Shown here one piece after another: positions 1-50,694 of a DNA stretch of 50,694 nucleotides. Origin of the DNA: a virus; IMG/VR virus record IMGVR_UViG_3300045136_000360, positions 1-50,694 of that record. One strand, 5' to 3'. Position 1 is the stretch's first letter, and each line of letters starts with the position of its first letter. The notes beneath the pieces were generated by a model. That model had not been told where the DNA came from, searched no databases, and worked only from the letters and a program-made list of their open reading frames with translations. The position numbers and the translations under genes were made by a program.

Positions 1-493
1 CGTACTCGCTGACCACGTTTCAATCCTCACCCGACCCCGCGGCCGGGTGCGACCCGCCGCACCGGCTGCTGGTGGCGCTGACGAGCAAGTTTCAATCCTC
101 ACCCGACCCCGCGGCCGGGTGCGACGCGTGAAGGCGGTCTCGGGCGCGACCGCGGCGGAGATGTTTCAATCCTCACCCGACCCCGCGGCCGGGTGCGACC
201 TGGCGGCGCTCGGCTACGGCACCCAGTTCGCCGCCGTTTCAATCCTCACCCGACCCCGCGGCCGGGTGCGACGATGCAGGCGCTAGAGCAGGCAGGGGGG
301 AGTGGGACGCGTTTCAATCCTCACCCGACCCCGCGGCCGGGTGCGACGCGCCCCGTGATGAGCGACCGCGACCCCGGCGACGTTTCAATCCTCACCCGAC
401 CCCGCGGCCGGGTGCGACGTGGGGAGATCGGCGAGTTGGTAGCCGGCGAGGGCCAGGTTTCAATCCTCACCCGACCCCGCGGCCGGGTGCGAC
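1..493 (-). CRISPR. CRISPR array, left piece (7 repeats, 6 full spacers)
   Basis: Seven identical 37-nt repeats begin at 17, 89, 163, 236, 311, 382 and 457. On the + strand each starts GTTTCAATCC and ends GGGTGCGAC. Spacers are 34-38 nt (54-88, 126-162, 200-235, 273-310, 348-381, 419-456), and positions 1-16 are part of another spacer. On the - strand the repeat ends in ATTGAAAC, the usual 5' handle of type I-A/I-B/III-like systems, so transcription is inferred to run leftward from the phage side. The repeat has an inner palindrome around CCGCGG. No AT-rich leader and no cas genes are present; phage-like sequence abuts the last repeat at 494. Spacer 273-310 is identical to 34783-34820 of this window. 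Spacer 200-235 is the exact reverse complement of a spacer in the right array (50596-50631). Confidence 0.98.
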
Positions 494-2546: not shown

Positions 2547-2719
2547 GGACGCTGGAGGAGAACGGCCACCTCTTCACCTGCTGGGGGAGCCGCGAGGCTG
2601 TCCCCTGCACCCACGACGGCTGCCGCGCCGTGCGCGCCGCCGTGGCACTCGCCCGCGAGCGGGGCTATCTCGACCGATCGACCGCCACCCATGGAGGGAC
2701 TGGGCATGAGCGAGCATAG
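2543..2719 (+). CDS. Small cysteine-containing protein
   Basis: A 58-residue product beginning MRTLEENGHLFTCWG, read from the ATG that overlaps the stop of the preceding gene and ending inside the next gene (overlap 2706-2719). Three cysteines plus a histidine (C-x8-CTHDGC) could bind one metal ion. No family is recognised. Coupled starts on both sides are the main evidence that it is expressed. Confidence 0.5.
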   Translation: MRTLEENGHLFTCWGSREAVPCTHDGCRAVRAAVALARERGYLDRSTATHGGTGHERA

Positions 2720-3143
2720 TACGATCGCCTGGACGGACGCCACCTGGCCGGTCGTCGTCGGCTGCGACCGCGTGTCGCCCGGCTGCGCTGCCTGCTATGC
2801 CATCCGCGACGCCTGGCGGATGGCGCACAACCCGAACCCGAAGATCAGCGACGTTTACCGTGGGCTGGTGGAGCCGTGCGGGGCGGGTCATCTGATGGAT
2901 CGCGATCCAGGGTGCGAGCACTGTCGCGGCACCAGGTGGCGGCCCACCGTAGAGGGGTTGGCCTGGGCGCGGTCGCTGCGGGACCAGTGCCAGGCGGCTG
3001 GGGTTGGCTTCTGGTGGAAACAGTGGGGCGGCCCCGGCCCGGAGAGTGGCGGGAGTCTGCTGGACGGACGCCGCTGGGAGCAGATGCCGGACGGGACGGG
3101 CGGGATCGTGGACTTCGGTCTTGACACATCCGCTATCAAGTGA
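2706..3143 (+). CDS. DUF5131 (phage Gp37/Gp68)-like protein with shortened middle
   Basis: The start MSEHSTIAWTDATWPVVVGC and the Cys-rich SPGCAACYA match the opening of the Gp37/Gp68 (DUF5131) family, and the end WARSLRDQCQAAG...WWKQWGG...LLDGRRWEQMP matches its tail. Family members are usually about 230-300 residues; this one is about 145, so the central part seems to have been deleted and replaced by a short Cys/His-rich stretch (about residues 50-78). Function of the family is unsettled. The 3' end overlaps a promoter (TTGACA at 3121). I read it as a decayed or minimised member. Confidence 0.65.
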   Translation: MSEHSTIAWTDATWPVVVGCDRVSPGCAACYAIRDAWRMAHNPNPKISDVYRGLVEPCGAGHLMDRDPGCEHCRGTRWRPTVEGLAWARSLRDQCQAAGVGFWWKQWGGPGPESGGSLLDGRRWEQMPDGTGGIVDFGLDTSAIK

Positions 3144-3389: not shown

Positions 3390-3416
3390 CACTCAAGAGT
3401 ATCATTGACACGTTAG
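3388..3416 (+). promoter_or_regulatory. Operator element before the sigma-factor gene
   Basis: Half-sites GACAC (3388), GTATC (3399) and GACAC (3407) are phased as in the other copies and end about 10 nt before the sigma-factor ATG, abutting its ribosome site (AGGAGAG). No clear -35 box lies upstream at the expected distance. The element overlaps the stop of the preceding gene. Confidence 0.6.
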
Positions 3417-3425
3417 GAGAGACGA

Positions 3426-4022
3426 ATGCGGGTGCTGGGAGATCGGGAGGCGGAGATCGTGGCGCGGGCGCGGGCGGGCGACTCCGAGGCGCAGGGGGAG
3501 ATCTACGGGGCGTTCCGGTGGGTGATCTACGCCTTCATCTACCGGATGGTGGGCGACGAGGATGAGGCGGAGAACCTGACTCAGGACACCTTCATGCGGG
3601 CGTTTCGGGGGCTGTCGGCGACCAGGGAGGACACGAACGTGTCGGCCTGGCTGCACCGGATCGCCTCGAACGCCTGCCTGGACGTGCTGCGCCGGCGGCA
3701 GCGGCTGCGCTGGCAGCCGTGGGAGGGAGAGAAGCACGACCACCTGGTCGTCAGCACGGCGCTCGACGACCCGGAGCGCTCGGCCGAGCGGCGGGAGACG
3801 ATCCTGTTCGTCCGGCGGGTAATGGACCAGATGTCGAGCCGCCACCGGCTCGGGCTGATGCTGCGGGAGTACGAGGGCCTGAGTTGCGCGGAGATCGGGG
3901 AGGTGATGGGCCTGAGCCGGACGGCGGTCAAGTCGATGCTCTTCCGGGCGCGGGAGGAGTTCCGGGCGGTGTATGCCCGGCTTGAGCAGGAGGACCGGGA
4001 GTGGGCGGGGGCGGCGGCGTGA
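3426..4022 (+). CDS. RNA polymerase sigma factor, ECF-like sigma70 family
   Basis: A 198-residue protein with the two-domain plan of group 4 sigma factors. Region 2 is about residues 15-85 (EIYGAFRWVIYAFIYRMVGDEDEAENLTQDTF, with the conserved DAED-like/LTQDTF segment and WLHRIASNACLDVLRRR). Region 4 is about residues 125-182 (SSRHRLGLMLREYEGLSCAEIGEVMGLSRTAVKSMLFRAREEF, a clear helix-turn-helix). The length is typical of ECF factors. Phage-encoded sigma factors redirect host RNA polymerase to middle or late promoters. Its gene carries the same operator as other units, so it may be part of the regulon or direct it. Confidence 0.88.
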   Translation: MRVLGDREAEIVARARAGDSEAQGEIYGAFRWVIYAFIYRMVGDEDEAENLTQDTFMRAFRGLSATREDTNVSAWLHRIASNACLDVLRRRQRLRWQPWEGEKHDHLVVSTALDDPERSAERRETILFVRRVMDQMSSRHRLGLMLREYEGLSCAEIGEVMGLSRTAVKSMLFRAREEFRAVYARLEQEDREWAGAAA

Positions 4023-4415
4023 CGGTGGGGACGCGGAGCCTGCTGTTCGGGGTGCACCAGTTCCTTCTTCACCCGGTGATGGTGGCCCTGGGGTGGAGGA
4101 TGCTGTATGGGCGGTTCCCGAGGGACCCGCGAGTGTCGCACCCGGCCGCGGGGTCGGGTGAGGATTGAAACCCGCCACTGCTCACGCGAGATTGGGGTGC
4201 CGCCATCGCCCCTGTGCTGGGCGGACAAGCTGGCGACCGCGCTGTACCCCGCCTGGTTATTCCTGTTCCTGGCCCGGCTGAGTGGGGAGATAGGGGAGTA
4301 TCTGGCGCGGGCGCGGGAGGATGGTTCTATCGGCCCCGAGGCGACAGAGCGGGAGTGTCTGGCGACGTTACAGACCGACTGGCGACGGCAAGCATACGAG
4401 TATGGGGATCGTTGA
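4019..4415 (+). pseudogene. Phage protein (HD-like/LCWADKL family) split by a CRISPR repeat and lacking its middle
   Basis: From GTG 4019 (overlapping the sigma stop) the frame reads VTVGTRSLLFGVHQFLLHPVMVALGWRMLYGRFPRD up to 4134, then the CRISPR repeat begins at 4135 and its sequence brings a stop. After the repeat, 4172-4415 continue as CSREIGVPPSPLCWADKLATALYPAWLF...SGEIGEYL. Both halves match, in order, the two ends of a widespread phage protein I recall as GVHQF-HP...LYGR...HDWGYWG...HSR-YAR...LCWADKL. About 50-60 central residues, including the His/Asp-rich core, are missing. So the repeat sits exactly where a deletion has occurred, which points to a join made through CRISPR spacers rather than simple insertion. 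Confidence 0.7.
4135..4171 (+). CRISPR. Solitary full-length CRISPR repeat inside phage sequence
   Basis: One complete 37-nt repeat, identical to the terminal arrays' repeat and oriented like the right array (ending ATTGAAAC on the + strand). There is no second repeat within hundreds of bases. It interrupts a phage gene. Phage-encoded solitary repeats are known as RNA anti-CRISPRs, but the missing gene centre on either side suggests instead that the ~35-nt flanks (about 4100-4134 and 4172-4206) are adjacent spacers identical to the phage. Confidence 0.97.
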
Positions 4416-4438
4416 GCGACACGGCGGAGGAATGAGCA

Positions 4439-5761
4439 ATGGACCGGACGATCACCGAGCGCGACCCGTTCCTGGCAATGCCGCGCATCACGCCGGAGGG
4501 GTTCGCGGGGGCGATGGACGGCTCGCCAGCGCTGGCCGAGCGGCCGGCGCGCGCCTACTGGGAGGCCATCGCGGCCACGGGGGTGGACCCCCTGGTTGTG
4601 CTGGCCATCTTCCAGCATGAGAGCAGGATGGGCCGGCTGGGCGTGGCGACGGTGACGAAAAGCTGGGGGAACGTGAAGGCGACCAGTCGGCAGTTCGGGC
4701 CGCCGCCCGTGGGGACCTACACGACCGAGGATGGGCGGGCCTTCAGCAAGTACGCGACCTGGCTGGATGGTTGCGTGGCGACGGCGGCGCGGCTGGCAGC
4801 GCCGGAATGGGTCTACCGGGGCCGGGCGGGGATGGGGGAGGTGTTCGATCATCCGAGCGGGATGGTGTGGGCGCCGGCCGGCGACCGCAACGACCCGGCC
4901 GGCTACCTGGCGAGCGTGCTGCGGTTCATGAACGACCACGCCGACGCCCCGCACCTGGTGGAGGGGCGGTGGGCGATGGTCAACTCCGATCCGGAGCGGG
5001 GCGGGGCGGTGGAGGCGATCGTGCTGCACATCGCCGATGGGACCTATGACGGGACGATCAGTTGGTTCCGGAATAGCGGGTCAGGGGTCTCGGCGCACTT
5101 CGTGGTGGCGCTGGACGGGCGGATCGGGCAGTGCGTGCCGCTCGATCGCGTGGCCTGGGCGAACGGTTGGGACTTCCGCAAGGGGCTCGCCCGCTACCGG
5201 CCGAATCTGGCGAACCACCTGATCGCTCGCTGGTGGCGGGAGGGGAAGAACCCGAATGCGGTGACGGTGAGCATCGAGCATGAGGGCGTGTCCGGGCAGG
5301 GGATGCCCGAGGCGCAGTTGCGGGCCTCGGTGGCGCTGACCCGGTGGCTGTGCGACACCCTGGGAGTGCCGCGGGACCGGGATCACATCCTCGGGCACCG
5401 CGATCTCGACTCGGTGGAGCGGTCGAGGTGTCCGGGGCTGAGTGACCAGGAGTGGGGAGTGTACCTGTGGATGGTAGACGATGGGCCGGCTCCGGCCGCC
5501 GGGGGTGGGGATGAGTTCTACGCCCCGGACAACCCGTTCGGGGCGGTGCCGATGCGCCCACCAATCTGGACCAGGTGGAACCTGCTGCACCAGCAGGGGC
5601 TGGCGCTGCCGATGGTGGGCTACCCGATGGCCCCGCCGCAGGATGCCGGTGGGCGGATGATCCAGCGGTTCGAGCGGGGATGGCTGGCGGCCCAGGGAGA
5701 GCCGGAGCCGTGGGACGTGGTGATGCTGATGCCCCATGAGATCGCCAGCGGGCCGTCGTGA
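4439..5761 (+). CDS. Two-domain endolysin: glucosaminidase/lysozyme-like plus amidase_2
   Basis: This 440-residue protein should cut peptidoglycan at the end of infection. Residues ~35-170 look like a muramidase/glucosaminidase fold, with a likely catalytic Glu in IFQHESRMG. Residues ~180-335 are an N-acetylmuramoyl-L-alanine amidase (amidase_2/PGRP): AIVLHIADGTYDGTISWF, SAHFVVALDGRIGQC, then ILGHRDL and RCPG supply the His, His, Cys zinc ligands. After a glycine-rich linker, residues ~360-425 (IWTRWNLLHQQGLALPMVGY) form a further small domain, probably wall-binding. No signal peptide is seen, so export would need a holin. Holin-like genes lie 36 kb away at 41-42 kb. Confidence 0.88.
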   Translation: MDRTITERDPFLAMPRITPEGFAGAMDGSPALAERPARAYWEAIAATGVDPLVVLAIFQHESRMGRLGVATVTKSWGNVKATSRQFGPPPVGTYTTEDGRAFSKYATWLDGCVATAARLAAPEWVYRGRAGMGEVFDHPSGMVWAPAGDRNDPAGYLASVLRFMNDHADAPHLVEGRWAMVNSDPERGGAVEAIVLHIADGTYDGTISWFRNSGSGVSAHFVVALDGRIGQCVPLDRVAWANGWDFRKGLARYRPNLANHLIARWWREGKNPNAVTVSIEHEGVSGQGMPEAQLRASVALTRWLCDTLGVPRDRDHILGHRDLDSVERSRCPGLSDQEWGVYLWMVDDGPAPAAGGGDEFYAPDNPFGAVPMRPPIWTRWNLLHQQGLALPMVGYPMAPPQDAGGRMIQRFERGWLAAQGEPEPWDVVMLMPHEIASGPS

Positions 5762-12578: not shown

Positions 12579-14261
12579 GTGGTGGCGGCCCGGTCGGAGC
12601 GGCTGGAGGCGACGCTGACCGCGCTGACGGCGGTGCGGTTGCGCCGGCTCTATCACCAGCGGGCGGCGGCGGCGATGGGCCGGGAGGTGCCCGAGCCGAC
12701 CGACCGGGACCTGCGGGAGTTGGAGGGGGACTGGGAAGGCTGGCTGGGGGCGATGTTTCCCGGGGCAATGGCGGCGCCGTTCGGGGAGCACCATCGGCGC
12801 TACTGGGAGTTGATCTGGTCGATCGAGGCCGGGGAGCGCCCCCGCCCGATCGTGATGATCCTGGCCCGTGGGGGAGGCAAGTCGACCTGCGCGCAGGGGG
12901 CGGTCGTCGCCCTCGGGGCGCGGCGCAAGCGCCGGTACGGGCTGTACGTGTCGGGGACGCAGGACCAGGCCGACAAGCACCTGGCGGACGTGGAGAACCT
13001 GCTGGGCTCGCCCGGCATCGAGCGTTATTACCCCGACCTGGCCCGCCGCAAGGTCAACAAGTACGGCCACTCGCGGGGCTGGCGGCGCAACCGGCTGTGG
13101 ACCGCCAGCGGGTTCGTGGTGGACGCGATGGGCTTCGATACCGCCATCCGGGGTATCAAGGCCATGAACCAGCGCCCGGACTTCATCGTGATCGATGACG
13201 TGGACGCCCAGCACGACTCCCCCGAGGTGGTGCGGAAGAAGATCGACATCCTGACCGGGAGCATCTTGCCGGCCGGCTCGGGGGATTGTGCCGTGCTGGC
13301 GATCCAGAACGTGGTGCACCCGGACGGGGTGTTCGCCCGGCTGGGCGGGGTGAGCAAGACGCCCGCCGACTTCCTGGCCGACCGGGTGCTGATCGGTCCG
13401 ATCCCTGCCGTGGTCGGGCTGACCTACGAGCAGCGGGAGGATGACGAGGGCCGGCTGCGGTTCGTCATCACCGGGGGGACCGCCACCTGGGAGGGGCAGT
13501 CCCTGACGGTCTGCCAGCATCAGATCGACACGATGGGCATGAGCGCCTTCCTGCGAGAGGCGCAGCATCAGGTTGGCGCGCCACCGGGCGGGATGTTCTC
13601 ACACCTGCGCTACCAGCACGTGACGCGAGGCGAGATGCCGGCGCTGGTGCGGGTGGAGGTGTGGGTGGACCCGGCGGTGACGGACACGGATCAGTCGGAC
13701 GCCCACGGCATCCAGGCTGACGGGCTGGGCGTGGATGGGCGGGTCTACCGGCTGTTCTCCTGGGAGGACCGGACGACGCCCGAGGACTCGCTGCGGCGGG
13801 CGATCGCCAAGGCCGTGGAACTGGGGTCGCTGGTGGTGGGGGTCGAGACGGACCAGGGGGGCGACACCTGGCGGAGCGTGTACGAGCGGGCCTGGGAGCG
13901 CTTCGCGGCCGACTGGCGGGAGGCGCGGCCGGGCCGGGACCTGCCCCGGCGACCCGACTTCGTGTGGGCCAAGGCGGGCCAGGGGCACGGCCCCAAGGTC
14001 CACCGGGCCAGCCAGATGCTGGCCGACTACGAGGCGGGTGGGATCGTGCACGTGACCGGGACGCACGAGACGCTGGAAGCGGCGCTGTTCCGCTACCCGC
14101 TGACCAAGCCGCTCGATCTGGTGGACGCCGGCTACTGGTCGTGGGCCAGCCTGCGGAACCGATTCACCCCGACCGCGCTCCCGGAGAGCCTGGAAGCGCC
14201 GAGTATCTGGAGCATGGAGCGGGGCGATACCCTTGGGGATGATGAATACGGCGACGACTAG
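12579..14261 (+). CDS. Terminase large subunit
   Basis: A 560-residue DNA-packaging motor. Walker A is ILARGGGKSTC (about residue 90-100), Walker B is FIVIDDVD (about 200), and the nuclease half shows WVDPAVTDTDQSDAHGI, VVGVETDQGGDTW and further acidic residues (residues ~360-430) for RNase-H-like metal binding. It cuts concatemeric DNA and threads it into proheads through the portal encoded next. It starts at GTG 12579. Positions 13130-13163 are the exact protospacer of a spacer in the right CRISPR array, so the host defence targets this gene. Confidence 0.92.
   Translation: MVAARSERLEATLTALTAVRLRRLYHQRAAAAMGREVPEPTDRDLRELEGDWEGWLGAMFPGAMAAPFGEHHRRYWELIWSIEAGERPRPIVMILARGGGKSTCAQGAVVALGARRKRRYGLYVSGTQDQADKHLADVENLLGSPGIERYYPDLARRKVNKYGHSRGWRRNRLWTASGFVVDAMGFDTAIRGIKAMNQRPDFIVIDDVDAQHDSPEVVRKKIDILTGSILPAGSGDCAVLAIQNVVHPDGVFARLGGVSKTPADFLADRVLIGPIPAVVGLTYEQREDDEGRLRFVITGGTATWEGQSLTVCQHQIDTMGMSAFLREAQHQVGAPPGGMFSHLRYQHVTRGEMPALVRVEVWVDPAVTDTDQSDAHGIQADGLGVDGRVYRLFSWEDRTTPEDSLRRAIAKAVELGSLVVGVETDQGGDTWRSVYERAWERFAADWREARPGRDLPRRPDFVWAKAGQGHGPKVHRASQMLADYEAGGIVHVTGTHETLEAALFRYPLTKPLDLVDAGYWSWASLRNRFTPTALPESLEAPSIWSMERGDTLGDDEYGDD
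13130..13163 (-). other. Protospacer matching right-array spacer 50525-50558
   Basis: The 34-nt spacer at 50525-50558 is the exact reverse complement of 13130-13163 (34 of 34), in the terminase large subunit between the Walker motifs. In repeat-forward orientation the protospacer is on the - strand, with CAT immediately 5' of it. That is the candidate PAM position for type I systems. Confidence 0.97.
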
Positions 14262-14273
14262 GAGGGGTGGGCG

Positions 14274-16742
14274 ATGGTGGCGGAAGAGGCGCGGCCGGCG
14301 GGCCGGCTGGTGCTGGAGGAGATCGGGCGCACCGGCCTCACTCAGCACGGGGGGTACATCTATGAGGAGTACACCCGCGAGCTTCATGGCACCCGCTGGC
14401 GGGACACCGTGCGGGACATGGTGGACAACGACCCGATCGTGGGGGCGATCCTGTTCGCGGTGGGGATGTTGCTGCGGGGCGTGACCTGGACGATTGTGCC
14501 GGCCTCGGACGATCCAGAGGATGAGGCGGTCGGCCAGTTCTTCTCCGAGTGCTGGCAGGACATGAGCCATACCCCGGAGCAGTTTCTGGCCGAGTGCCTG
14601 AGTTTCCTGCCCTGGGGGTGGTCGCTGCACGAGATCGTCTATAAGCAACGCCTGGGCCCCAACCAGACCGACCCCAGCAAGCGGAGCCAGTACGACGACG
14701 GGCGGATCGGCTGGCGCAAGTTTGCCATCCGGTCGCAGGACACCCTCTTGAAGTGGGAGATCGATGACGCGGACGGCTCGGTGCGGGGCATGTGGCAGCA
14801 ACTGCCCACCACCGGGAAACTGGTGTTCATCCCGATCGAGAAGTCCTTGCTCTTCCGGACGACCAGCCGCAAGGGGAACCCCGAGGGGCGGAGCATCCTG
14901 CGGAACGCGGTGCGGCCCTGGCACTTCCGCAAACACATCGAGACGATCGAGGGGATCGGGGTCGAGCGGGACCTGGCGGGGTTGCCGGTGCTGTACGCCC
15001 CGAGCCAGATCATGCTGGACAACGCCAGCCCGGCCGAAAAGACCCTGTACAGCCAACTCAAGCGGATCATCCGGAACATCAAGCGGGATGAGCAGGAGGG
15101 CCTGATCATCCCCGGCGACCGGGATGACAAGGGCAACCGGCGGTACGAGTTGACCCTGCTGTCGACTGGCGGGCAGCGGCAGTTCGACACCAACACGATC
15201 GTCACCCGCTACGCCCAGCAGCTCGCCATGACCGTGCTGGCGGATTTCGTCTTGCTGGGCCATGAGAAGGTTGGGTCCTTCGCCCTCTCCAGCGACAAGA
15301 CGGGCATGTTCACCTTCGCGCTGAACACCTGGGCGGCCGAGATCGCGGGGGTGCTGAACCGCTACGCCGTCCCCCGGCTGATGGCCCTCAACGGCATGGA
15401 CCCGCGTCGCCGGCCGACCTTCCAGCCCGGCGAGGTGCAGGCCCCCGACCTGGGCGCTCTGGCCGACTACGTGACGAAACTGGCCGGATCGGGGGTGCCA
15501 CTGTTCCCCGACCCGGAGCTTGAGGGCTACCTGCGCCGGGTGGCCAAACTGCCGACCCCGCCGCTCGAGGAGCTTGAGGCGCGGGCGAACGAATTGCGTC
15601 AATTGCGTCAGGAGGAGGCGGAACGCCGGGAGGTCGAGATGGCGGTGATGGCGACGCGGGGACAGGGTGGCGGGCCACCGGAGGGCGAGGCGCCGGACCA
15701 GGGGCAGCAGGCGCGGGAGGTGGCGCTATGGCCCGGCTGGGGGGAATACAACCGGCGGGTGGGCATGACCCGGCGCACGGCGGAGGATGACATCGACGTG
15801 GACCATGAGGCGCGCCGGCAGGGGGACGGCTGGCGGGAGGCGGCGTTGCCGGTCGATCCGCGGGTGCCGGCCTACGCGACCGGGCCGGTGAGTCTGGACA
15901 CGGCGGTGGCGGAGATCATCGCGGACCAGCGCTGGGAGGCCGAGGGCCGCAAGCGGGCGGAGCGGGTGCAGGACGAGCGGGCGCGCCGGGGGGAGGCGGG
16001 CGCGCCACAGACGTTCCACCTGGCCGGGCAGCACGACCAGAAGACGCACGGACACGGCGGGACCGGGGCCGGTGGTGGCCCGGCGGGCACGCCGGTGAGC
16101 AAGGCGCTGACGCACGATCCGCTCCACCCGCCGATCATCGCCACGACACTGGCGGAGACGATGGCGGTGATCGATGCCGTGCACGGGGACGGCGACCTGC
16201 CGACGATCCCCGTGCGCCTGGGGGGCAACACGGCCGGGGTGTACAACTACACCGTGGCCCCGGACGGGCGCAAGGTCGCCCGAGAGATCGGGGTAAGCCC
16301 GGGCCTGGCGATGGGGAGCCCTCACTGGGCATTGACGCACGAGGTGGGGCACCTCCTGGATCAGCAGGGGTTCGGCGGGGGCAAGGGCTGGAGTTCCCGC
16401 CACGACCCGCACCCGGCCTGGCAGGCGTTCCGGGACGCGGTTGACGCCTCCCCAACCATTCAGCATCTCCGGGCGCTGCATACCGGGAAGGCCCAATTGC
16501 CCGGCCAGGGGAAATCCCTGCTCCAGCAGGGCAAGTACGTGGATTACCTCTTGAAGCCGGAGGAGGTGTTTGCGCGGGCCTACACCCAGTGGATCGCGGT
16601 GAAGGCGAACCACAAGGGGATGCTGGGGGTGATCAACAAGACGACCAGTGGGCCGATCCCGATGCACTGGCCCAAGAGCGAGTGGGGGCCGATCGGGGCG
16701 GCATTGGACGCGCTGTTCGCGGCGAAGGGCTGGACGCAGTAG
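14274..16742 (+). CDS. Portal protein fused to a zincin metallopeptidase-like domain
   Basis: Residues ~1-480 are a DUF935-like portal (YEEYTRELHGTRWRDTVRDMVDNDPIVGAIL, LPWGWSLHEIVYKQR, EGRSILRNAVRPW, GHEKVGSFALSSDKT, MNG-DPRRRPTF). An acidic/Arg-rich linker follows, then FHLAGQHDQKTHGHGG. Residues ~600-822 form a separate domain with HEVGH at about 689-693 (zinc HExxH), a downstream third-ligand candidate in the YLLKPEEVFARAY segment, and C-terminal KSEWGPIGAALDALF. The portal forms the dodecameric DNA gate. The peptidase would be a virion-carried or maturation enzyme, like the polyvalent-protein proteases of other phages. Portals are normally 450-550 residues, so the fusion is unusual. Confidence 0.85.
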   Translation: MVAEEARPAGRLVLEEIGRTGLTQHGGYIYEEYTRELHGTRWRDTVRDMVDNDPIVGAILFAVGMLLRGVTWTIVPASDDPEDEAVGQFFSECWQDMSHTPEQFLAECLSFLPWGWSLHEIVYKQRLGPNQTDPSKRSQYDDGRIGWRKFAIRSQDTLLKWEIDDADGSVRGMWQQLPTTGKLVFIPIEKSLLFRTTSRKGNPEGRSILRNAVRPWHFRKHIETIEGIGVERDLAGLPVLYAPSQIMLDNASPAEKTLYSQLKRIIRNIKRDEQEGLIIPGDRDDKGNRRYELTLLSTGGQRQFDTNTIVTRYAQQLAMTVLADFVLLGHEKVGSFALSSDKTGMFTFALNTWAAEIAGVLNRYAVPRLMALNGMDPRRRPTFQPGEVQAPDLGALADYVTKLAGSGVPLFPDPELEGYLRRVAKLPTPPLEELEARANELRQLRQEEAERREVEMAVMATRGQGGGPPEGEAPDQGQQAREVALWPGWGEYNRRVGMTRRTAEDDIDVDHEARRQGDGWREAALPVDPRVPAYATGPVSLDTAVAEIIADQRWEAEGRKRAERVQDERARRGEAGAPQTFHLAGQHDQKTHGHGGTGAGGGPAGTPVSKALTHDPLHPPIIATTLAETMAVIDAVHGDGDLPTIPVRLGGNTAGVYNYTVAPDGRKVAREIGVSPGLAMGSPHWALTHEVGHLLDQQGFGGGKGWSSRHDPHPAWQAFRDAVDASPTIQHLRALHTGKAQLPGQGKSLLQQGKYVDYLLKPEEVFARAYTQWIAVKANHKGMLGVINKTTSGPIPMHWPKSEWGPIGAALDALFAAKGWTQ

Positions 16743-34700: not shown

Positions 34701-34852
34701 TGACCGGGCCGCTGGTGGGGAGCATCTCGATCCAGGGGCGAGAAGACGTGACGGCGCTGCTGCGGGCGCTGGAGGGGATGCTGATGCAGGCGCTAGAGCA
34801 GGCAGGGGGGAGTGGGACGCGATTCCCGCTGGGGATGGAGCGGCGGATGTAG
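31760..34852 (+). CDS. Tape measure protein
   Basis: A 1030-residue protein in the canonical place after the chaperones. The N-terminal half has TMP-type sequence (RFAAQTPFEFPELLTASRRLLAF, EGIGRLTTALGQMQAKGRVQQEELLQLQE, FQGAMSTISDSLRDAAATAF). A hydrophobic segment (~300-335) precedes long coiled-coil regions (~400-680). The C terminus has GGSFVVGGHGGLDSQLVSFMATPGE, common at TMP ends. At about 0.15 nm per residue it implies a tail near 150 nm. The extreme 3' end, 34783-34820, is an exact protospacer of left-array spacer 273-310. Confidence 0.93.
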   Translation: MSFGPQMTLADLMVRLNLDTSNFERGARRAEQSARGFRRVLQDTLSGATMGAGMAVANAALSVLVQAFNAAQDAVIGFNSTLEQADLAFGKMLKSGEAARSFLADLKRFAAQTPFEFPELLTASRRLLAFKFQAGQIIPLMTAIGDVAAASGNAGAEGIGRLTTALGQMQAKGRVQQEELLQLQEAGVATSEILAIVARDVGMTMDEVEEALSKGRISSDAFIKAFMEWSQANVGGMMAEQAKTFQGAMSTISDSLRDAAATAFRALFVRLSEAAQRFAQFVQSAEFGEWVQKTALYVEFVIRALAVLANAFQRTMVAIATIVVTAGAVILKGMALLNPFVRHSPSLVESVEEGFGRRIPAAIAGMAEQVREKLAIAGRAVAAFKAMASGGLARAEGLRESETVGQVARLGPGATGAYVEARNAMRDLESQAESLGGEIREGEAALREMERALRPLQDAFDAASRRVQGYRNTIAEAQEAMRRLVSEGKLPGEEHHENQLADNRRRQAETELRMLELKAKGSPTATDEREYQRLQKQLEGLRTEEQRLRLQGELTFGEQRRKLAQAAGEHKEVSARDRLAGILKAKEALQQAQQALPAAEAEMKGAGEALELAKGKIELQRTALQDLKDEYAEITRELQAQRAAMDQMLAEARELDQAAKAGAGGAGKGDIGKGLTFGAGTAPPWAKKADDWATENNALRSLATELEETLKTLEKNLDTGVGKIEAFATGFQKQFGIEGGLPGALAAFRQGWDDNFGPMMEKLGEFGTWLSENTPAAMQGFQRGWETYLRPTFEAIREGAKTVGVDVNTGLVQLFSLWLPLSLGNWQRSWAVAEAVFKGMGPLFDPHGPMKPLYDFEVFWRVTLPVAVNGFLGNTLDKLLEGLGSLLEKLRPIGEVLGAIKKGFESIKPPDWMGGGNAAPGMDGGNGRGSGGGRRQMYATGGSFVVGGHGGLDSQLVSFMATPGERVTITPPGNGGGALALTGPLVGSISIQGREDVTALLRALEGMLMQALEQAGGSGTRFPLGMERRM
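34783..34820 (-). other. Protospacer matching left-array spacer 273-310
   Basis: All 38 nt of the spacer at 273-310 are identical, same + strand sense, to 34783-34820. In repeat-forward orientation the protospacer lies on the - strand, with ATC immediately 5'. The target is the last codons of the tape measure gene. Confidence 0.97.
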
Positions 34853-50268: not shown

Positions 50269-50694
50269 GTCGCACCCGGCCGCGGGGTCGGGTGAGGATT
50301 GAAACCGGTGGAGGGGGTGGCGTGCGCCAGTGCAGGGACGTCGCACCCGGCCGCGGGGTCGGGTGAGGATTGAAACGCCAGCCCGCGGATGGCTGCCTCC
50401 CCGAGCTTGAGTCGCACCCGGCCGCGGGGTCGGGTGAGGATTGAAACAAACCCTGAGATCGCGTCATTGATGCCTTTGCCGCCGACTGTCGCACCCGGCC
50501 GCGGGGTCGGGTGAGGATTGAAACGGCCTTGATACCCCGGATGGCGGTATCGAAGCCCGTCGCACCCGGCCGCGGGGTCGGGTGAGGATTGAAACGGCGG
50601 CGAACTGGGTGCCGTAGCCGAGCGCCGCCAGGTCGCACCCGGCCGCGGGGTCGGGTGAGGATTGAAACCAGACCCGCCGGCGCGCCCGCGGCCC
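50269..50694 (+). CRISPR. CRISPR array, right piece (6 repeats, 5 full spacers)
   Basis: Repeats start at 50269, 50340, 50411, 50488, 50559 and 50632. They are identical to the left array but on the opposite strand (GTCGCACCCG...ATTGAAAC on +). Spacers are 34-40 nt; 50669-50694 is an incomplete last spacer. Spacer 50525-50558 exactly matches the terminase gene (13130-13163, opposite strand). Spacer 50596-50631 is shared with the left array. No leader or cas genes. Both arrays point outward from the phage, with their presumed leader-proximal ends at the phage junctions. Confidence 0.98.

What the first reader, a model, noticed from the sequence alone, without database searches (positions are those of the whole stretch)
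4135..4171. Solitary CRISPR repeat inside a phage gene: crossover scar or RNA anti-CRISPR
A single intact repeat lies in a phage gene. Known phage solitary repeats can act as RNA anti-CRISPRs by capturing Cas proteins. Here, however, the gene is missing ~50-60 central residues exactly at the repeat, which fits a path phage - spacer A - repeat - spacer B - phage, with A and B adjacent spacers against the same gene. Either outcome is notable: a candidate Racr in a GC-rich phage, or direct evidence of two neighbouring spacers taken from one gene.
Basis: partly seen in the sequence, partly recalled or inferred. Interest (0 to 1): 0.85.

Follow-up and report, generated by a model that had tools for sequence, protein, structure and literature searches.

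The report
CRISPR repeat misassembled into phage gene
A bacterial CRISPR repeat sits in the middle of a broken phage gene in this assembled contig, most likely because the assembler crossed between the phage and its host's CRISPR arrays through spacers identical to phage DNA, so it is probably an assembly artefact and not a new phage weapon.

Summary
An intact 37-nt CRISPR repeat lies at 4135-4171, inside a gene that lacks about 48-66 central residues present in all 22 relatives that span the region. But it is not solitary. Thirteen identical copies form arrays at both contig ends (17-493 minus strand; 50269-50668 plus strand). The two arrays share one repeat-spacer-repeat unit with different neighbours on both sides. 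Two of their ten complete spacers match this phage perfectly, at 34783-34820 and 13130-13163. Every phage/repeat junction falls exactly on a repeat edge. The simplest account is a chimeric assembly: the contig leaves the phage through host spacers at three places, and at 4135 it re-enters ~150-200 nt further on. A toy de Bruijn test shows this path is legal for k up to 36, whether or not the two spacers are neighbours, so it does not prove adjacent spacers. The nearest repeats in cellular genomes sit beside type I-C cas genes. Racr features fail: no promoter, inside a gene, not solitary. A better Racr candidate with a related repeat was found elsewhere (L090:533-569). A real phage-array recombinant is not excluded without reads. 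The PAM test was inconclusive.

The parts
4135..4171 (+). intact 37-nt CRISPR repeat (type I-C-like) inside a phage gene
   Evidence: exact match to 13 other copies; Rfam CRISPR-DR9
4022..4134 (+). N-terminal half of a phage gene of the 'GVHQF...HDWGYWG...LCWADK' family, cut at the repeat
   Evidence: translation, alignment with 22 relatives
4172..4415 (+). C-terminal part of the same gene in another frame; 48-66 central residues are missing
   Evidence: translation, alignment
4099..4134 (+). inferred spacer/protospacer A (about 34-40 nt, phage side entering the repeat)
   Evidence: inference from the junction; no TTC PAM at the expected distance
4172..4207 (+). inferred spacer/protospacer B (repeat side leading back into the phage)
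   Evidence: inference from the junction; its PAM side lies in the missing DNA
17..493 (-). CRISPR array of 7 identical repeats at the left contig end; the phage begins at 494
50269..50668 (+). CRISPR array of 6 identical repeats at the right contig end; the phage ends at 50268
163..272 (-). repeat-spacer-repeat unit identical to 50559-50668 but with other neighbours on both sides
50559..50668 (+). repeat-spacer-repeat unit identical (reverse complement) to 163-272
273..310 (-). spacer, 38/38 identical to phage 34783-34820
34783..34820 (-). protospacer of spacer 273-310
50525..50558 (+). spacer, 34/34 identical to phage 13130-13163 (minus strand)
13130..13163 (-). protospacer of spacer 50525-50558

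Best explanation
The repeat at 4135-4171 is most likely not part of the phage genome. A host with a CRISPR-Cas system, probably type I-C, carries spacers copied from this phage. In short-read assembly, each spacer that equals phage DNA (34-40 nt) is a shared node between phage and array. The contig crosses such nodes at three places: at each end it runs off into an array, and at 4135 it passes through one repeat and returns to the same gene 150-200 nt further on, so the intact stretch is replaced by the 37-nt repeat. At that point the intact phage arm and the short repeat arm form a bubble in the graph, and the repeat arm has the higher coverage because every array position contributes to it. 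Shown: the repeat copies, the arrays at both ends, the two spacers matching this phage, the gap in the gene, the exactness of the junctions, and that the path is legal for k up to 36. Inferred: that A and B are spacers, the bubble and its coverage, and that the assembler and not the phage made the join.
For: Thirteen identical repeats form arrays at both contig ends in opposite orientation. All phage-repeat junctions (493/494, 4134/4135, 4171/4172, 50268/50269) fall exactly on repeat edges. Two of 10 distinct complete spacers match this phage at 100%, so this host population targets this phage, and an array carried by the phage itself would target its own genome. One repeat-spacer-repeat unit occurs in both arrays with different neighbours on both sides, as expected when assembly paths tangle in arrays. 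The gene is intact in all 22 spanning relatives and none has a repeat there. The toy graph allows the path for k up to 36. Chimeric contigs from CRISPR arrays in short-read assemblies are reported in PMC6617893. A second IMG/VR contig shows the same anatomy: L090:4537-4573 cuts an HNH gene after SRVVLT, where relatives continue with the HNH core.
Against: Reads were not available. Neither A nor B was found in any sequenced array, and no genome with the exact repeat was found (150 spacers of a related MAG give no real match). The type I-C PAM TTC is at the expected place at the left junction only, not at 4135 or 50269; of the two known protospacers one has ATC and the other has TTC two bases off. 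No independent copy of this phage with the intact gene was found, although records very near the window may be hidden by the tools. Multi-k assemblers usually resolve such joins at larger k.
Confidence: 0.85

Rival explanations
1. A real recombinant phage: a double crossover between the phage gene and a host array, at spacers A and B, replaced the middle of the gene by one repeat. Protospacer B would lose its PAM side and gain a self-like repeat handle, so the phage would escape that spacer.
For: It gives exactly the same sequence as the assembly path. The gene is small and might be dispensable. A second case exists in L090.
Against: It does not explain the arrays at both contig ends or the shared unit with different neighbours. 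Recombination over about 35-nt homologies twice within 200 nt is unlikely. Protospacer A would keep its 5' side.
Confidence: 0.07
2. A Racr: a solitary repeat transcribed by the phage as a small RNA that captures Cas proteins.
For: The repeat alone folds well (-20 kcal/mol, z -3.6) and is identical to the array repeat, so it could bind the same Cas proteins. Racr candidates exist for almost all CRISPR types (PMC10651486).
Against: Inside a broken gene and not between genes; no promoter-like site from 3400 to 4500; in its context the repeat hairpin is not favoured (z 0.87); not solitary in this record. Viruses with related repeats show what a better candidate looks like: L090:533-569 follows a promoter-like site and precedes an HTH gene, and L092:11895-11931 is intergenic.
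Confidence: 0.03
3. The phage carries real CRISPR arrays at both genome ends plus one stray repeat, used against competitors or the host.
For: Arrays and phage genes are joined in one record; some phages do carry CRISPR arrays (established knowledge).
Against: Two of ten spacers match this very phage perfectly; no cas gene was met among the window proteins scanned (not every gene was scanned); one unit is repeated with different neighbours.
Confidence: 0.03

Closest known systems
Chimeric contigs caused by CRISPR arrays in short-read metagenome assembly (discussed in PMC6617893)
   Same: Repeats collapse and join sequences that are not neighbours in any molecule.
   Different: Here the bridge is spacer = protospacer identity between host array and phage, and one crossing returns into the same gene, so it imitates an insertion with a deletion.
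Solitary repeat units / RNA anti-CRISPRs (Racrs), PMC10651486
   Same: A single intact repeat within phage sequence.
   Different: Racr candidates were sought in intergenic regions, solitary repeats are often just downstream of a promoter, and they are not associated with other repeats; here the repeat is in a broken gene, without a promoter-like site, in a contig with 13 more copies.
Type I-C CRISPR arrays (Cas3-Cas5-Cas8c-Cas7-Cas4-Cas1-Cas2)
   Same: The closest repeats in cellular genomes (JAJZIR010000002.1, JAGGZD010000098.1) lie beside type I-C cas genes.
   Different: The host with the exact repeat was not found, so the type is by repeat similarity only.

Membership tests
Racr / solitary repeat unit | not associated with other (partial) repeats | tested here: not met
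   No repeat within 100 nt, but 13 identical copies as arrays in the same 50.7-kb record
Racr / solitary repeat unit | lies in an intergenic region | tested here: not met
   Interrupts a gene conserved in 22 spanning relatives
Racr / solitary repeat unit | often just downstream of a promoter | tested here: not met
   0 promoter-like sites at 3400-4500; the consensus scan may miss other promoter types
Racr / solitary repeat unit | expressed as a small RNA that binds Cas proteins | not testable with these tools
   needs small-RNA sequencing and binding assays
Spacer-bridged assembly chimera | arrays with the same repeat joined to the phage elsewhere in the contig | tested here: met
   arrays at 17-493 and 50269-50668
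Spacer-bridged assembly chimera | array spacers identical to the phage | tested here: met
   38/38 at 34783-34820 and 34/34 at 13130-13163
Spacer-bridged assembly chimera | both flanks of the internal repeat are spacers of the host | tested here: inconclusive
   no array holding A or B found; PAM test inconclusive
Spacer-bridged assembly chimera | junction not supported by spanning reads | not testable with these tools
   reads not held
Type I-C CRISPR array | type I-C cas genes beside the array | not testable with these tools
   the arrays run off the contig ends, so their cas neighbours are not in the window; related repeats in two MAGs lie beside type I-C cas genes

The most novel reading that the evidence does not exclude
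A real phage that recombined with its host's CRISPR array at two spacers, swapping the middle of a gene for one repeat and thereby hiding one protospacer behind a self-like repeat handle. The L090 HNH gene would be a second instance.
Probability: 0.07. Interest if true: 0.75.

Novelty: not a real feature. Interest (0 to 1): 0.2.

Why it matters
It shows how a host spacer identical to phage DNA can make an assembler write a CRISPR repeat into a phage gene. Such contigs look like solitary repeats, so lists of Racr candidates drawn from viral metagenomes should check whether the gene around the repeat has a gap and whether arrays of the same repeat occur in the contig or sample. The two perfect spacer matches do give a sound link between this phage and a host that carries this repeat, probably with a type I-C system.

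Tried and rejected
Exact repeat in IMG/VR and GTDB contigs: none. Repeat with up to 1 mismatch in 111 and 400 genomes of the phyla of the two MAGs with related repeats: none. Spacers of the related MAG LSA4.bin17 (150 spacers) against the window: only 13-18 nt partial matches, taken as chance. Exact flanks A and B in other viral contigs: none. Same phage in GenBank phages: none for window bases 1-25000. PAM test of the junctions: inconclusive. Terminase-based relatives gave no match to the broken gene, so relatives were found through the gene itself. Relatives of a virus record cannot be drawn. The idea that the contig proves adjacent spacers was rejected by the toy graph.

Full report
What is there. 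The 37 bases at 4135-4171 are a perfect CRISPR repeat, one of 14 identical copies in the window, recognised by Rfam as CRISPR-DR9. Seven copies form an array on the minus strand at 17-493 and six an array on the plus strand at 50269-50668.

The gene. Upstream of the repeat, from about 4022, the frame reads TVGTRSLLFGVHQFLLHPVMVALGWRMLYGRFPRDPRV and then runs into the repeat and stops in it. Downstream another frame reads RHCSREIGVPPSPLCWADKLATALYPAWLFLFLARLSGEIGEYL.... A search of IMG/VR gave 23 relatives; 22 span the region and all are continuous, with 48-66 residues between the two halves, including a conserved HDWGYWG...MDG..G..HP stretch. The two representatives scanned have no Pfam match. 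If the gene is otherwise intact, the missing stretch is a multiple of three bases long. So the window shows an internal gap filled by exactly one repeat.

The arrays and the phage. Ten distinct complete spacers are present. Spacer 273-310 equals phage 34783-34820 in 38 of 38 bases and spacer 50525-50558 equals phage 13130-13163 in 34 of 34. The host population that owns these arrays has therefore met this phage. One repeat-spacer-repeat unit, 163-272, is repeated as 50559-50668, but its neighbours differ on both sides; this is expected where an assembly path wanders through repeats, though independent arrays sharing a spacer are possible.

Junctions. The phage meets a repeat edge at 493/494, 4134/4135, 4171/4172 and 50268/50269. 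In repeat orientation three of these are phage-to-repeat and one is repeat-to-phage. This is what follows if spacers identical to the phage act as bridges: the phage side of each junction is itself the spacer.

Toy graph. With a random filler in place of the missing stretch and a host array holding A and B, the window's path is a legal walk in the de Bruijn graph for k from 21 to 36 and not for 37 and above. It is equally legal when A and B are far apart in the array or in reverse order, since the repeat itself collapses at these k. The path therefore does not show that A and B are adjacent. The spacer length of 36 was assumed; real spacers here are 34-40 nt. The test shows possibility, not that the assembler did it.

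CRISPR type. The exact repeat was not found in genome contigs, but a looser pattern found related repeats in two MAGs. Beside them lie cas3, cas5, cas8c, cas7, cas4 and cas1 of type I-C. The known type I-C PAM is TTC at the 5' side (PMC8406640, abstract). At the left junction TTC lies 36 nt before the repeat; at 4135 and 50269 there is none; the two known protospacers have ATC, and TTC shifted by two bases. I count this test as inconclusive.

Racr. Published Racr candidates were sought in intergenic regions, apart from other repeats, and solitary repeats are often just downstream of a promoter (PMC10651486). The window's repeat is inside a gene, has no promoter-like site nearby, and folds no better than shuffled sequence in its context. 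A scan with a looser repeat pattern gave other virus contigs with related repeats. L090:533-569 lies 9 nt after a promoter-like site and before an HTH gene, and L092:11895-11931 lies between genes: these look like ordinary Racr candidates. L090:4537-4573, however, cuts an HNH-type gene after SRVVLT, where relatives go on with the HNH core: the same anatomy as in the window.

Judgement. The assembly chimera explains the internal repeat, the gap, the end arrays and the shared unit together; the rivals explain only part. A real recombinant would give the same bases at 4135 and cannot be excluded without reads, so I keep 7% for it.

Noticed in passing
L090:533-569 (IMGVR_UViG_3300045902_000236): Intact related repeat 9 nt after a promoter-like site TTGAAT-17-TATGAT and just before a ribosome-binding site and a small HTH gene: a good Racr candidate, possibly with an Aca-like regulator.
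   Followed up: partly
L090:4537-4573: Second identical repeat in the same contig, cutting an HNH-type gene after SRVVLT with its core missing; same anatomy as the window, probably the same artefact.
   Followed up: partly
L092:11895-11931 (IMGVR_UViG_3300000827_000030): Single related repeat between a RecT-like gene and the next gene, 19 nt before its start codon: another Racr candidate.
   Followed up: partly
L089:1-201 and L091:10532-11051 (IMGVR_UViG_3300022554_000219): Virus record with cas8c (49659-51383), cas2, a leader-like stretch and a repeat at the right end and three repeats at the left end; the cut spacer parts (15 + 20 nt) add up to one 35-nt spacer, so the record may be circular with its own type I-C system.
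   Followed up: partly
window 2691-3143: DUF5131-like gene of 150 aa whose first ~45 residues match the start of a 243-position family; a middle stretch seems to be missing, with no CRISPR repeat there.
   Followed up: partly
window 12579-14261 and 14274-16742: Terminase large subunit and portal; the nearest IMG/VR relatives are only about 56% and 50% identical, so the phage has no close relative among the records shown.
   Followed up: partly
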